Source: an uncultured Bacilli bacterium
GTDB taxonomy: Bacteria; Bacillota_I; Bacilli_A; RF39; UBA660
NCBI GenBank assembly: GCA_944359595.1
Contig: CALVSV010000072.1
Span: 1 to 11,400 of the forward strand
Direction of reading: 5' to 3'
Length of the DNA: 11,400 bases
In this document: in pieces, positions 7,107 to 11,400 of the stretch
Position numbering within the stretch: position 1 is the first letter of the stretch
Layout of the letters: every line of letters starts with the position of its first letter
Made by a program: the position numbers and the translations under genes
The notes under the pieces: generated by a model
The model's input: the letters and a program-made list of their open reading frames with translations, nothing else
Databases searched by the model: none
What the model was told of the DNA's origin: nothing

Positions 7107-7115
7107 ATTATATCA
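7107..7115 (-). promoter_or_regulatory. Extended -10 promoter for the membrane-protein/619-residue gene pair
   Basis: The minus strand reads TGATATAAT: a perfect TATAAT (7107-7112) with the upstream TGn of an extended -10. No good -35 is present at 16-18 bp (TTTTAA at best), as expected for extended -10 promoters. The start point would be near 7100, just upstream of the GGAG that serves the ATG at 7085. This also argues against the TTG start at 7103. Confidence 0.6.
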
Positions 7116-7116
7116 T

Positions 7117-7145
7117 GAATATTGTTTTTTTAAAAGTCATATTAT
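7117..7145 (+). promoter_or_regulatory. Sigma-E-like (mother-cell sporulation) promoter of the GerQ-like gene
   Basis: GAATATT (7117-7123), 14 bp, then CATATTAT (7138-7145). The Bacillus sigma-E consensus, from memory, is about KMATATT-N14/15-CATACAnT, so the -35 and spacing fit and the -10 keeps CATA and the final T. Predicted start is near 7152, with the AAAGGAG ribosome binding site immediately after. Sigma-K, which also reads CATA-type -10 boxes, is an alternative. No sigma-A type box fits this gene as well. Confidence 0.5.
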
Positions 7146-7168
7146 TAAATTGTAAAGGAGAATTGTTT

Positions 7169-7438
7169 ATGAATAATAACTATTATCAAAATCCAATAAT
7201 AGACGATAAAACATATAATAATCCATTAACATATATTGATATTTTTAATTTAAATAGGGGTAAAATGGCAACATTTTATATAGATAACGAATCAAAAGAA
7301 TGTAGTGAATTGCACGGAATAATTGAAAAAGCTAGTTATGACTATATAATAATAAGTGATCCTAAAACTGGTAAATGGACACTTCTATTACCAAATTATT
7401 TAAATTATGTTATATTTGATGAAAATATAAATTATTAA
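7169..7438 (+). CDS. gerQ: GerQ-family spore coat protein
   Basis: An 89-residue protein whose last ~65 residues match the GerQ (YwdL, PF09671) domain as I know it: YIDIFNLNRGKMATFYI near residues 22-38, then HGIIEKASYDYIIISDPKTG (49-68), and LLLPNYLNYVIFDENINY at the C-terminus, equivalent to GerQ's YLDYxxFDEEINY. In Bacillus, GerQ is a spore coat protein cross-linked by transglutaminase and is needed to localise the germination lytic enzyme CwlJ. This copy is about half the length of B. subtilis GerQ and lacks its long Gln-rich N-terminal extension; the usual GRDH before IIISDP is SYDY here. The frame is open from an ATG at 7115, but the ATG at 7169 has AAAGGAG eight bases upstream and the upstream ATG falls inside the promoter, so 7169 is the start. 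It is monocistronic and divergent from the membrane-protein operon, and it implies spore formation or a sporulating ancestor. Confidence 0.85.
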   Translation: MNNNYYQNPIIDDKTYNNPLTYIDIFNLNRGKMATFYIDNESKECSELHGIIEKASYDYIIISDPKTGKWTLLLPNYLNYVIFDENINY

Positions 7439-7482: not shown

Positions 7483-7524
7483 GCACCCCCAACCGAATAT
7501 ATGCATGCATTCGGTTGGGGGTGC
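7483..7524. repeat. GC-rich perfect 16-bp inverted repeat downstream of the GerQ-like gene
   Basis: GCACCCCCAACCGAAT (7483-7498) and its exact complement (7509-7524) enclose a 10-nt loop. The loop with its flanks contains the self-complementary ATGCATGCAT (7501-7510). Ten of 16 pairs are G-C in a region otherwise almost all A/T. It could stop transcription of the GerQ-like gene, but no T-run follows on either strand (GTTATAATATTT on the plus side), so a classical intrinsic terminator is not shown. A dispersed hairpin repeat is the other possibility. Confidence 0.8.
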
Positions 7525-7704
7525 GTTATAATATTTGTCACATTTAATCTGCATATACAGTTAGTAACTCCCTATTCAACGCTATTTATTACTACTTTAT
7601 GTTAATTTTCAAATTATATAAACCAAAAAACGAATAAAATTTCAAAATTATAATGACAAAAAAACAAAATAGTATAAAATAAATTAAAAAAAGTTGTTTA
7701 AATT

Positions 7705-7746
7705 ATAATAACTACTATATTTATAAATATAGTAGTTATTATTTTT
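7705..7746 (+). terminator. 38-bp perfect palindrome followed by a T-run
   Basis: Positions 7705-7742 are a perfect palindrome (half-site ATAATAACTACTATATTTA, 19 bp), continued by TTTT to 7746 on the plus strand, the layout of an intrinsic terminator. It is AT-rich but long, and would end any plus-strand transcript coming through the GerQ-like gene or starting near 7680. On the minus strand a T7 run begins only 12-15 nt after the stem, so bidirectional use is possible but less likely. Confidence 0.6.
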
Positions 7747-7767
7747 GAATTAACTATAAAAAATCAT

Positions 7768-7897: not shown

Positions 7898-7978
7898 TGT
7901 AAATGTTAAAATAGAATTGGACAAAAATGTCAATCTAGAAATTGGACAGTTTGTACCAATTCTATTTTAACATTTACA
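7898..7978. mobile_element. 81-bp element with 23-bp perfect inverted ends (MITE- or IS-end-like)
   Basis: The left arm 7898-7920 (TGTAAATGTTAAAATAG then AATTGG) is exactly complementary to the right arm 7956-7978, with 35 bp between. The element begins TGT and ends ACA, and just inside the left arm reads TAGAATTGGACA. A near copy, TAGAAATTGGACA, occurs at 7936-7948. TG...CA termini with TTGGACA nearby resemble ends of IS3-family (IS150-group) insertion sequences, so this may be a non-autonomous derivative or the fused ends of a deleted IS. No clean target duplication is seen: only GA flanks both sides. The stop codon of the neighbouring minus-strand gene (7974-7976) lies inside the right arm. 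It could also act as a terminator for that operon, since a T6 run follows shortly after on the minus strand. Confidence 0.6.
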
Positions 7979-8297
7979 GATGATATCTTTCTAAACTTTT
8001 ATTAGCTAACAAATATGCAAGAATACCACTAGTATAATAATACTCAATATTGTTTTCATTAAGCATTTTATTATATTCATCAAATATTTTATATATCAAT
8101 TTATGATTTTCATCTAAATGACAAAAATTAGGATTGATCTGCATATTTATTAACCATAAATATCTATTATATAAATAATCAACGCTCACATTGTAATCAT
8201 TTGCAATTAATTCTAGTTTATGCATTCGGCTTTTATCATCACATATATCACAATATGCATTATAAATTAAAATGTCTAGTTTATCTTTTTCACTCAT
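7974..8297 (-). CDS. Nucleotidyltransferase-like protein, apparently cut off before its active site
   Basis: 107 residues. The end, IFDEYNKMLNENNIEYYYTS then GILAYLLANKSLERYH, resembles the N-terminal part of nucleotidyltransferase-fold proteins ('...gI.YyltGglA.yL..k.l.RyH.DIDi..'), in which the catalytic D-x-D follows within a few residues of R-Y-H. Here the frame reads RYHL and stops in the right arm of the 81-bp inverted-repeat element, so the catalytic motif is absent. The N-terminal half is charged and helical with an HTH-like KLELIANDYNVSVDYLYNRY. The ATG at 8297 has a good SD (GGAGG, 10 bases upstream) 18 bp after the ycaO stop, so it was the last gene of the RiPP operon. I infer a fragment disrupted by the element. 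An intact small protein of another kind is the alternative. Confidence 0.5.
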   Translation of the reverse strand: MSEKDKLDILIYNAYCDICDDKSRMHKLELIANDYNVSVDYLYNRYLWLINMQINPNFCHLDENHKLIYKIFDEYNKMLNENNIEYYYTSGILAYLLANKSLERYHL

Positions 8298-8315
8298 AAT
8301 TATAAATCCTCCATT

Positions 8316-9593
8316 CTATGGAAACGGATGAGGCATATCCGTTAACTTATCACTATATTTTAAATTCAATTTTTTTGGTACAAGAAAAAACCGAGTTGCT
8401 CCTAGTCTTGGATATATATGACTTTTATTTAAATCAATTAGACTTGGTGCTATAACTTTAACCACTTTAATACCTGTTTTCTTTATATCATCAGTAGTTA
8501 ATTCCTTATAATATACATCTATATTTTGCAATTTTAAATTTTTTATTAAATCATTAAAAGATGTAACTTCTCTTTTATAATCAATTACTTTGCTATTAAA
8601 TAGTAATTTATTAAAATTATTACTTTGATAATATAAAAAGTGCTCATATAATGTTTTAATTTTTTTTGGATTTTCTTGACGAACATCCATTATATTTAAA
8701 GAATAAAAATAAGTAAATAAACATTCTTTTAATGACTTATTAATTGCATAATCCGAATTTAAATTAGCACATGCACCTATACCATAATGTATATGATTTT
8801 TTTCGTTTTTATAGATAATAGATAAATAAATTGGAACTTTAATATCAGAATATAGCTTATATATTTTTATATTATATTCTTTTTTTATTATATTTATCAA
8901 ATTTAAATTTTTTGTATCTAATGTTTCTAAATTTATTTCTGGTGGATCTAATCGTTGCATAAAATTAATCATTAATGCGTCTCTTTCTATTAATTCCAAC
9001 AATCCACTTTGTATACACTCATCTAATGTAAAACCCGCCGCCATACCAGTAGATGTAGTTTCAGCCACTGGTTTATTTAAATCATATGGCAAATATATTA
9101 AACTTGCAGGCCAATATTTAAATGTTTGTTTATTATCAATACTATAAATCTTTGTCCATTCTATTTTTTCCTTATTAAGATTTAGAAATAAATTAGAGTT
9201 GTTATATTGATCTTCACTATACGTAAAAAAATTATCAAAAGTATTTTCTTTTTTTAAATTTGCTTTAATATTTCTTATAATTTCTTTTTTGGGAATATAT
9301 GACATACAATAACGTTCTAACGCCTCTGCTAAACAACTAGTCATAGCAATCTTTTCATCTTCATTCACACCTAAACCACCACTAGAAATTTCTCTACTTG
9401 AACCAAACAAATCAACAGTATTAGCACTTAAACATTGATACATACAAAGATTATACTTATCTAATTCATATCGTTTTAACATAGCGTTTACTATTCCAAA
9501 TTTATCACTAAATATATCAGTTAACTTTTCATAATCTTTTCCTAAAATATTTATTATTTCTTTTTTACTTAATATCAATTTATTCTTTTTCAT
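8316..9593 (-). CDS. YcaO-domain cyclodehydratase (TOMM/azoline RiPP biosynthesis, SagD-type)
   Basis: A 425-residue YcaO protein of the kind that uses ATP to activate the backbone amide and cyclise Cys, Ser or Thr in a precursor peptide to thiazolines or oxazolines. Seen (numbered from the 428-residue upstream GTG): SSGGLGVNEDEKIAMTSCLAEALERYC (about 73-99), matching the first ATP/Mg segment with E93/E96-type acidic residues; TSTGMAAGFTLDECIQSG then LLELIERDA (183-209), the second ATP-binding segment; and YGIGACANLNSDYAINKSLK (273-292) with the following E. GATRFF near 401 and the final PHPFP are the PxPxP tail typical of azoline-forming YcaOs. The length is normal and nothing essential appears lost. 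The ATG at 9593 is chosen (AGGTGA five bases upstream); GTG 9602 and ATG 9596 are too close to that SD. It overlaps the F-like gene by 14 bp. Confidence 0.92.
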   Translation of the reverse strand: MKKNKLILSKKEIINILGKDYEKLTDIFSDKFGIVNAMLKRYELDKYNLCMYQCLSANTVDLFGSSREISSGGLGVNEDEKIAMTSCLAEALERYCMSYIPKKEIIRNIKANLKKENTFDNFFTYSEDQYNNSNLFLNLNKEKIEWTKIYSIDNKQTFKYWPASLIYLPYDLNKPVAETTSTGMAAGFTLDECIQSGLLELIERDALMINFMQRLDPPEINLETLDTKNLNLINIIKKEYNIKIYKLYSDIKVPIYLSIIYKNEKNHIHYGIGACANLNSDYAINKSLKECLFTYFYSLNIMDVRQENPKKIKTLYEHFLYYQSNNFNKLLFNSKVIDYKREVTSFNDLIKNLKLQNIDVYYKELTTDDIKKTGIKVVKVIAPSLIDLNKSHIYPRLGATRFFLVPKKLNLKYSDKLTDMPHPFP

Positions 9594-9915
9594 CATATTC
9601 ACCTGGCACTTTTAATATTGAATGTAAAACAATTTCTCCATTTTTATATATTTCAATTATTTGATTATTTTTTAAAGTATCTTTATATTTATTAATTAAA
9701 TAATTAGATTTTGTTTTAAACATTTTTTTATATATTTTAAATGTATATATGCTATTAGATTTAATTCTTTTATAAAATGATTTTTCATCAAATTTTGAAT
9801 TTATTAATGGACCAATTAAATATGACTTTTTAGTTTTGGCAATTAATATTGATTTATTTTTAATATTTCTTTTTTTTAAATAATCACCATAAAATAAATA
9901 ATTATTATTTAACAT
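9580..9915 (-). CDS. Minimal E1/F-type TOMM partner protein (Ocin-ThiF-like remnant)
   Basis: 111 residues. The N-terminal half, YLKKRNIKNKSILIAKTKKS then YLIGPLI (33-38) and FYKRIKSN (47-54), follows the pattern of ThiF/E1-like cyclodehydratase partners ('..lN......p.L.v...g...iGPlf.pg.t.Cy.C...Rl.sN'). The end NGEIVLHSILKVPG (92-105) matches their 'G.v..H.vl.vPgC..C'. The two CxxC zinc-binding pairs of the family are missing (KSFYKR and PGEYDE stand in their places), as are the usual N-terminal peptide-binding (RRE) and adenylation-fold domains. A docking partner that couples YcaO to its substrate is the likely role, since these E1 homologues present the leader peptide to YcaO. TAGGAG eight bases before ATG lies inside the upstream gene, which it overlaps by 11 bp; it overlaps ycaO by 14 bp. 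The family call is from pattern and context, so moderate. Confidence 0.6.
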   Translation of the reverse strand: MLNNNYLFYGDYLKKRNIKNKSILIAKTKKSYLIGPLINSKFDEKSFYKRIKSNSIYTFKIYKKMFKTKSNYLINKYKDTLKNNQIIEIYKNGEIVLHSILKVPGEYDEKE

Positions 9916-11089
9916 ATTTAAGACTCCTATTTTTCTGATTTTTCATAAAACTTTGAGCTTCTTCATTAAAATTATCTAAATTATTAATTAAATTTTCTTT
10001 TTCTTTAGTTTTATCATTAACACTTATAAACCATTTTCCTATACTTGTATTCATAAAGTTTTCTATTTCATTAAACGTCCTATTCTGCTTTGTTTTATAT
10101 AGTGGATCACATACTTTAAATCCATATTCATCATATCCTGTAAGTAAAACTGCATGATATCCACCAGGAATCTCACCTGCCAATATTACTAAATTACCGT
10201 CTTGCAATTTTTGTTTTAATAAATTAATAGTTATATTCACACCATTTACAACTTTTGCACCTTTATTTTCTGCATAATTTAAATATTCTTTATATTCAGA
10301 CATTGCAAGTTCAAAATTATCACTATTAATAGTTCCTTGATCATTTTTAAATAGTTCTTTATTTTCATGATAAATTGTTGTCTCTAATCCATTCTTGGCC
10401 ATATAAAATGCTAATGCTGAAAATGGAGTTCCACTCATATACTTTGAACCAAATATTCTATATAACCTTCTCTCATCATACCAATTTGCTTTTGAAATAA
10501 CTTTATAATACTCTAATACCATCATCATACAAACAATAGCACAAGTATCTCCTCTTTGTTTATATGGTCTTACATTTTTATCCATATTGTTTTCCCTTTC
10601 TTTTTTTAAAACTTCTAATGCTTCTACGATTATATTATTATTAAATTCATATATATAACCATTATTTTTCAAAATACCACTACTATTAAGATATTCTAAA
10701 ATTTTCCTTCTAAATAAGAATCCGGAAATACCAATTAAATTGGAAGCAATTAGTTTTTCATCTAAATTATCATAGATAATAATATCTCTAATTGCTTTTC
10801 TATCTTCATGTTCAAGAGTAAAATAAAAGTGTTGAGTTTTATAATGTTCAGATATTTTATAATGTTTTATATCTTCTAAAATTTTGCTTTCTGACATTAA
10901 TAGATTATGTTTGAATTTTTTTTGAAACCTAGATAAAAATATTTTTTCATCCCCAGCGTGATATTTTTTTAATAAATAATCTTTAAATTTTTTAGTATCG
11001 TTATCGTTTGTTTTAAGTAAATATATATAATATAAATGGTCTATTTGATATTGAGCAAAAAATGTTTCAACAGGTGGTGTAATTAACAT
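9905..11089 (-). CDS. Two-domain protein: unknown N-terminal half plus C39-like cysteine peptidase
   Basis: 394 residues. From about 173 the sequence follows papain-fold C39-like peptidases (PF11814/PF13529 type): VRPYKQRGDTCAIVCMMM (Q178 as oxyanion-hole residue, C183 as nucleophile), ERRLYRIFGSKYMSGTPFSA then LAFYMAKNGLETTIY, GGYHAVLLTGYDEYG (H312) and CDPL (D328), so the catalytic set looks complete. Residues 1-165 are helical, charged and unrecognised; SNLIGISGFLFRRKILEYLN followed by SSGILKNNGYIYEF could be a winged-helix unit, possibly an RRE-like leader-binding module (inference). There is no signal peptide, so it acts in the cytoplasm. Leader removal from the peptide modified by the neighbouring YcaO is the likely task. 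The ATG at 11089 has no clear SD and follows the ATPase stop by 10 bp, so it may depend on coupling or be a new junction. It overlaps the next gene by 11 bp. Confidence 0.75.
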   Translation of the reverse strand: MLITPPVETFFAQYQIDHLYYIYLLKTNDNDTKKFKDYLLKKYHAGDEKIFLSRFQKKFKHNLLMSESKILEDIKHYKISEHYKTQHFYFTLEHEDRKAIRDIIIYDNLDEKLIASNLIGISGFLFRRKILEYLNSSGILKNNGYIYEFNNNIIVEALEVLKKERENNMDKNVRPYKQRGDTCAIVCMMMVLEYYKVISKANWYDERRLYRIFGSKYMSGTPFSALAFYMAKNGLETTIYHENKELFKNDQGTINSDNFELAMSEYKEYLNYAENKGAKVVNGVNITINLLKQKLQDGNLVILAGEIPGGYHAVLLTGYDEYGFKVCDPLYKTKQNRTFNEIENFMNTSIGKWFISVNDKTKEKENLINNLDNFNEEAQSFMKNQKNRSLKYVK

Positions 11090-11099
11090 TATATTTGCT

Positions 11100-11400
11100 T
11101 TAGCTAATAGATAATTCTCTCATTCTTATCATAGAATACTCATCAAACATATTAAGTGATGAATGTGTGCCCATTTTTTTAATAGGTAGTATACCTGTCA
11201 TATATACTAACCCTACATACGATTTATCTTTAAATAAATTTCTTAAGAAGTCTAAATATTTATTTTGTAATTCTTTATTATTTCTATTTTCTCTTAATAT
11301 TGCGTCCCATTCATCTATTATAAATATAAATTGTTCTTGTTCTTTTGAATATATAATATCAAACGCTTCAGACAAAATATTTATTTCTTCCTCTTTTAAA
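11100..11400 (-). pseudogene. AAA-ATPase-like protein (PF09820 type), N-terminus beyond the edge and C-terminus cut off
   Basis: The frame is open to the right edge, so the gene starts beyond 11400. The visible ~100 residues contain QFIFIIDEWDAI (Walker B, with the DEWD typical of this family), YLDFLRNLFKDKSYVGLVYM then TGILPIKKMGTHSSLNMFDE and YSMIRMREL. These match 'predicted AAA-ATPase' proteins that usually continue with GFTE-EV and a PD-(D/E)XK nuclease domain for several hundred more residues. Here the frame ends SIS and TAA (11100-11102) right after REL, so the C-terminal part is gone and the next gene begins 10 bp later. This family is multicopy and mobile in many anaerobes, so a remnant at an island edge is plausible. 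An apparent TTG at 11375 is only an internal codon. Confidence 0.8.

What the first reader, a model, noticed from the sequence alone, without database searches (positions are those of the whole stretch)
7974..11089. Compact RiPP (TOMM-like) operon: C39-like peptidase, shrunken F-type partner, YcaO
Seen: three overlapping minus-strand genes, including a YcaO with intact ATP-binding segments and a PHPFP tail, directly preceded by an F/E1-like 111-residue protein and a C39-like peptidase. Known: such YcaOs with an E1/F partner make azolines in peptides, and C39-type peptidases can remove leaders. Inferred: a streamlined azoline-RiPP pathway in a low-GC Gram-positive host. No precursor, dehydrogenase or transporter is in view, so the product would be unoxidised azolines, or the missing parts lie to the right of the window or elsewhere.
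Basis: partly seen in the sequence, partly recalled or inferred. Interest (0 to 1): 0.78.

Follow-up and report, generated by a model that had tools for sequence, protein, structure and literature searches.

The report
Tiny-precursor YcaO peptide-modification operon
The window holds a piece, broken at both ends, of a conserved bacterial operon that probably turns an 18-residue peptide into a small ring-bearing product; the candidate peptide gene was found in relatives just beyond the break.

Summary

The window copy is broken at both ends (7978/7979 and about 11119). A 98.9%-identical locus and four further loci show the whole operon: an 18-codon ORF, a hairpin, [helical domain + C39 peptidase], mini-E1, YcaO, a nucleotidyltransferase-like protein, then ThiE, a radical SAM protein or neither. 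The ORF encodes MRKLMRKFNKKYDMLCTA or a variant (Cys replaced by Ser in one) in 5 of 5 intact loci. A degenerate DNA pattern for it hits 3 of 386 family genomes, all operon carriers.

Verdict: a new variant of azoline-RiPP (TOMM) systems with an unusually short precursor. Product, chemistry and function are unproven.

The parts
9905..11119 (-). 5'-truncated gene for the helical-domain + C39-like peptidase protein (the window ORF holds the last 394 of 536 residues); peptidase domain about residues 308-503 of the intact protein
   Evidence: PF13529; 98.9% DNA identity to L003 ends at 11119; Q320, C325, H454, D470 invariant in 78 aligned sequences; AF2 pLDDT 93.3; LahT/PCAT-like fold
9580..9915 (-). 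111-aa shrunken E1-like cyclodehydratase partner (mini C protein, without leader clamp and without CxxC)
8316..9602 (-). YcaO, azoline-forming type, PHPFP tail (true start probably 9593 or 9596)
   Evidence: PHPFP invariant in 18 aligned relatives
7979..8297 (-). 3'-truncated gene for a nucleotidyltransferase-like protein (about 106 of 290 residues)
   Evidence: identity to L003, whose ORF runs on to 290 aa; alignment of five intact copies; only sub-threshold NTase family hits
7898..7978 (.). 81-bp palindromic repeat at the left breakpoint
   Evidence: self-complementary, 83%; related stretches on contigs C80 and C64 of the same genome
11100..11399 (-). fragment of an AAA-ATPase_like gene joined at the right breakpoint; not part of the operon. 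In intact relatives this side holds the start of the peptidase gene and the 18-codon candidate precursor
   Evidence: PF09820 34.9 bits, cut-off 26.1; homology to L003 stops at 11119

Best explanation
The window carries a remnant, or a misassembled piece, of a conserved azoline-RiPP operon of uncultured Bacilli. In intact relatives the operon starts with an 18-codon candidate precursor gene (M-R-x-[LI]-x-[RK]-K-F-[ND]-[KR]-K-x-D-M-[LI]-[CS]-T-[AV]-stop) behind a strong Shine-Dalgarno sequence, then a hairpin, then the enzymes. Proposed order of events: (1) the basic N-terminal part of the peptide acts as leader; (2) the YcaO, helped by the mini E1-like protein, uses ATP to cyclodehydrate Cys16 (Ser16 in one genome), perhaps also Thr17, to a thiazoline or oxazoline, and with no dehydrogenase recognised in the operon the ring stays an azoline or is changed by an accessory enzyme; (3) the C39 domain removes the leader, leaving a product of a few residues, while the fused helical domain may bind the precursor because the mini E1 lacks the leader clamp; (4) the nucleotidyltransferase-like protein, and in some genomes a radical SAM protein, tailor the product. 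Shown: gene order and conservation, the model-level folds of S111 and of the peptidase domain, and the exclusive linkage of the ORF to the operon in the genomes searched. Inferred: every chemical step.
Confidence: 0.65

Rival explanations
1. The 18-codon ORF is a regulatory leader or arrest peptide that controls the operon, and the YcaO system acts on another peptide or protein encoded elsewhere.
For: Its position before a hairpin and the operon is what an attenuator or arrest peptide would have. The residues next to the stop codon are among the best conserved, as in arrest peptides (recalled).
Against: The terminator scan of L003 did not flag the hairpin, and no run of one regulatory codon is present. 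Amino-acid conservation covers the whole peptide. The one varying core residue changes Cys to Ser, both YcaO substrates. No other candidate was seen in the intergenic stretches read, apart from one vague look-alike in L054.
Confidence: 0.18
2. The YcaO installs something other than an azoline (thioamide or amidine) on the short peptide or on a protein.
For: YcaOs do all three chemistries (PMC7136475 passages); MJ1094 is among the PDB matches (its thioamidating role is recalled).
Against: Azoline formers score far better, the PHPFP tail is invariant in 18 relatives, the partner is E1-like by fold, and Cys/Ser-Thr sits at the candidate core.
Confidence: 0.12
3. On the breaks (a separate question): they are an assembly error and the host has the whole operon. 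The alternative is a real, recently moved fragment.
For: Error: two different genes are cut at each side, the left one at a repeat with related stretches on other contigs. YcaO and S111 are still open and nearly identical to L003 (4 and 2 nonsynonymous codon differences).
Against: The rest of the peptidase gene, ThiE and the precursor pattern were not found elsewhere in G000. The genome is 92% complete in 166 contigs and one search scored only three candidates per genome, so this is weak.
Confidence: 0.5

Closest known systems
[quoted passage not shown] LynD, TruD, MusD, McbBCD)
   Same: PxP-tailed YcaO with adjacent E1-like partner, a peptidase in the operon, a candidate precursor gene upstream with Cys/Ser and Thr in its C-terminal end.
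   Different: The partner has 111 aa and aligns only to the E1-like part (LynD 112-322); the precursor has 18 aa; no dehydrogenase or transporter recognised; nucleotidyltransferase-like gene and a helical domain fused to the peptidase.
Haloazolisin-type clusters (PMC4603692, passages read)
   Same: Truncated C-protein domain; the leader-binding part is missing, so another protein is suspected to bind the leader.
   Different: Those are archaeal, with fused C-D enzymes and mostly Ser-rich cores; here C and D are separate and the core has one Cys/Ser plus Thr.
LahT150 / C39 domains of AMS/PCAT transporters (structures; PMC6363468 seen as listing)
   Same: Papain-like C39 fold and catalytic residues; leader removal in RiPP pathways.
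   Different: No transporter attached; fused to a soluble helical domain; no Gly-Gly motif in the candidate precursor.
Microcin C (MccA/MccB) and pantocin (PaaA)
   Same: Very short ribosomal precursor (MccA has 7 residues, PMC7136475 passage) and an E1-like protein; nucleotide addition is a possible parallel.
   Different: No YcaO as core enzyme there (recalled); here the E1-like protein is much smaller and the NTase-like protein is a separate gene.

Membership tests
Azoline-forming RiPP system (TOMM/LAP) | YcaO with PxP tail, related to azoline cyclodehydratases | tested here: met
Azoline-forming RiPP system (TOMM/LAP) | NCBIfam SagD-family model TIGR03604 above its curated cut-off (not strictly defining) | tested here: not met
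   199.7 bits against 219.25; the broader TIGR00702 cut-off is met, 78.7 against 75.65
Azoline-forming RiPP system (TOMM/LAP) | E1-like (C) or ocin-ThiF-like (F) partner protein | tested here: inconclusive
Azoline-forming RiPP system (TOMM/LAP) | Precursor gene with Cys/Ser/Thr in the core, encoded next to the enzymes | tested here: met
   candidate ORF in 5 of 5 distinct intact loci and 3 of 386 family genomes; absent from the broken window copy; that it is the substrate is inferred
Azoline-forming RiPP system (TOMM/LAP) | Precursor is modified to azol(in)es | not testable with these tools
   needs expression and mass spectrometry
Azoline-forming RiPP system (TOMM/LAP) | Leader-binding domain (RRE) in a partner protein | tested here: inconclusive
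   S111 aligns to LynD only from residue 112; the helical domain of the peptidase protein could not be folded and searched alone
C39-type leader peptidase | C39 fold with Gln, Cys, His, Asp catalytic residues | tested here: met
C39-type leader peptidase | Double-Gly cleavage site in the substrate | tested here: not met
   no Gly in any of the five candidate precursors
Nucleotidyltransferase (NTP_transf_5 or aminoglycoside NTase) | Pfam match above the curated cut-off | tested here: not met
   of five intact copies only the one in L054 has hits, 14.0 bits (cut-off 31.2) and 14.5 bits (cut-off 21); SG and DxD positions invariant in five copies (meaning of the motif recalled)

The most novel reading that the evidence does not exclude
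A new, transporter-free, chromosomal RiPP class of uncultured reduced-genome Bacilli. It makes a very small, intracellular, cofactor- or signal-like product (a nucleotidylated azoline of about L-C-T-A) from what would be the shortest precursor of any YcaO system known to me. A mini E1-like protein without leader clamp helps the YcaO, and a new helical domain fused to a C39 peptidase recognises the precursor.
Probability: 0.3. Interest if true: 0.82.

Novelty: new variant of a known kind. Interest (0 to 1): 0.62.

Why it matters
If right, it shows how small an azoline-RiPP system can be: an 18-residue precursor and a 111-residue E1-like partner. Both are easily missed by family-based annotation (no model hit S111 here). 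A LAP rule quoted in PMC13289728 (passage) needs a dehydrogenase-type model beside the YcaO, and the survey in PMC7136475 (passage) needed an E1- or ThiF-like model hit, so both could pass it over. The carriers read here are uncultured, with genomes of about 1.2-1.5 Mb, and no export gene was recognised, so the product may act inside the cell. The gene set is small enough to test in a laboratory E. coli strain.

Tried and rejected
Non-RiPP YcaO: disfavoured by profile scores; in the tree E. coli YcaO lies apart, but on a very long branch and with midpoint rooting. Defence system: no PADLOC hit at E 0.01 for the four core proteins; the radical SAM protein of L010 scores 55 bits as viperin but 112 bits as MoaA-like, below that model's cut-off of 231. 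S111 as the precursor itself: no conserved Cys/Ser/Thr-rich end. ThiE as a core member: in L003 and L004/G027 only, not found in G006, G095 or G847, so treated as accessory; the idea that the operon makes the thiamine thiazole was not tested. Viral contigs: YcaO 0 relatives, precursor pattern 0. Plasmids: no match to the peptidase protein. Literature: the searches listed no paper that, by title, abstract start or the passages read, describes this operon; one search found none of the five peptide strings. That library lacks most subscription papers and holds no bioRxiv collection. Promoter scan of L003 no better than shuffles (56 against 53.7). Rfam: two T-boxes and two tRNAs only, none at the precursor.

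Full report
WHAT IS THERE. The window is a whole contig (G000:C72, 11,400 bases) of a 1.19-Mb, 92%-complete assembly, 16-29% GC in 1-kb windows. The three reported minus-strand ORFs are present. The YcaO matches PF02624 with 145.7 bits. It falls below the SagD cut-off (199.7 against 219.25 bits) but above that of the general YcaO-kinase domain. It is the only PF02624 match in this genome.

THE WINDOW COPY IS BROKEN. A locus in another MAG (L003, CALVYK010000001.1, 'uncultured Bacilli bacterium') is 98.9% identical to the window over 7979-11119 and aligns to nothing else in it. In L003 the peptidase gene codes for 536 aa, not 394, and the ORF that the window ends after 107 aa codes for 290 aa. 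At the right break an AAA-ATPase_like fragment is joined to the peptidase gene; at the left break lies an 81-bp palindrome with related stretches on two other contigs. The missing peptidase part, ThiE and the precursor pattern were not found elsewhere in G000, but the assembly is incomplete and one search scored only three candidates per genome. Assembly error and real rearrangement both remain open.

THE INTACT OPERON. Five distinct intact loci were read: L003; L004 (same length and layout as the G027 contig, L009); L010 (G006); L038 (G095); L054 (G847). All have the order peptidase protein, S111, YcaO, nucleotidyltransferase-like protein. The first three genes overlap, except that peptidase and S111 abut in L054. 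The fifth gene is ThiE in L003 and L004 (L003: TIGR00693 200.5 bits, cut-off 145.1), a MoaA-like radical SAM protein in L010 and L054 (57% identical), and neither in L038. L054 adds a Nudix-C39 fusion. relA lies directly upstream in three of the five (L003, L004, L010). No transporter or SagB-type gene was recognised, but only the operon proteins and a few neighbours were scanned with Pfam; the rest were read as ORFs.

SPREAD. YcaO searches: 4 of 59 relatives (own genome included, one a weak partial hit), 2 of 288 in the order and 2 of 17 in the genus of G095. Peptidase profile: 22 of 386 family genomes, of which 4 (G000 included) match well beyond the C39 domain; the other 18, and a second copy in G006, match the C39 domain only. 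In a phylum-wide sample 1 of 392 matched, the own genome. Eleven of the stand-alone C39 loci were read. None has a YcaO, S111 or nucleotidyltransferase relative beside it. Their surroundings mostly differ, but in L043 the gene follows relA directly and in L041 it sits beside mraY, genes that also lie near the operon in L003. So a cytosolic C39-like gene is common in this family, and the operon's helical domain was probably joined to one; the order of events is open. The protein database gave 234 YcaO, 144 peptidase and 119 S111 relatives (the first two are lower bounds, as only 8,000 candidates were scored). Of listed hits whose longest contig has at least 9 kb, 20 contig lengths are common to the YcaO (49) and peptidase (60) lists and 8 to all three, which fits co-localisation.

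THE CANDIDATE PRECURSOR. The stretch upstream of the peptidase gene in the five loci holds an ORF of 18 codons behind AGGAGGT-type sites: MRKLMRKFNKKYDMLCTA (L003, L004), MRKLLKKFNKKYDMLCTA (L038), MRRILKKFDRKFDMICTA (L054), MRMLRRKFNRKLDMLSTV (L010). A hairpin lies between it and the peptidase gene in all five; the folded stretches beat shuffles clearly in two (z -3.0 and -4.5), the others have z -1.4, -0.3 and -1.0. Column shuffling reaches the observed synonymous fraction in 0.26%, the third-position excess in 1.8% and five open frames in 0.98% of 5,000 trials; the pairs are not independent. A degenerate pattern made from these sequences, with one mismatch allowed, hits 3 of 386 family genomes, namely G006, G027 and G095, the three with a full-length peptidase match. 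That it finds its own sources is by construction; that it finds nothing else in several hundred megabases is the informative part. The core position that varies is Cys to Ser, both YcaO substrates.

MECHANISM. Cyclodehydration of Cys16/Ser16 (possibly Thr17) by YcaO plus mini-E1, cleavage by the C39 domain and tailoring by the nucleotidyltransferase-like or radical SAM protein is the reading that uses all conserved parts. [quoted passage not shown] here that part is missing, so the helical domain or the YcaO's own N-terminus must do it. All chemistry is inferred. The main rival is that the ORF is a regulatory or arrest peptide.

NOVELTY. The kind (YcaO azoline RiPP) is known. The 18-residue precursor, the mini E1, the fused peptidase and the nucleotidyltransferase-like gene make it a new variant. 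The searches listed under Tried and rejected showed no paper that describes it. PMC4603692, PMC7136475, PMC10036551 and PMC13289728 were seen by passages; all others as listings.

Noticed in passing
7115-7438 (+): A GerQ-like spore-coat protein gene (PF09671, 64.5 bits) in a 1.2-Mb genome; L003:17209-18177 also encodes a collagen-like Gly-Pro-Thr repeat protein of a kind seen on spore surfaces (recalled).
   Followed up: no
L054:2598-3554 (-): Nudix domain fused to a C39-like peptidase domain, directly after the radical SAM gene of the operon in G847.
   Followed up: partly
L039-L048 and L050 (11 loci read): A stand-alone C39-like peptidase gene of about 195 codons recurs across the family, mostly in differing surroundings; in L043 it directly follows relA and in L041 it sits beside mraY.
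   Followed up: partly
L054, minus strand, between the precursor (8779) and 9211: A second small ORF (27 codons, ending KKYMLFNGATNF) upstream of the candidate precursor, followed by a terminator-like hairpin and a T run; vaguely like the precursor.
   Followed up: no
7483-7524 and 7692-7755: Two more strong palindromes in the stretch between gerQ and the operon remnant; the first looks like a terminator stem.
   Followed up: no
L003:10952-11629; L004:7905-8543: ThiE overlaps the nucleotidyltransferase-like gene and is the only ThiE match in those genomes; other thiamine genes were not checked.
   Followed up: partly
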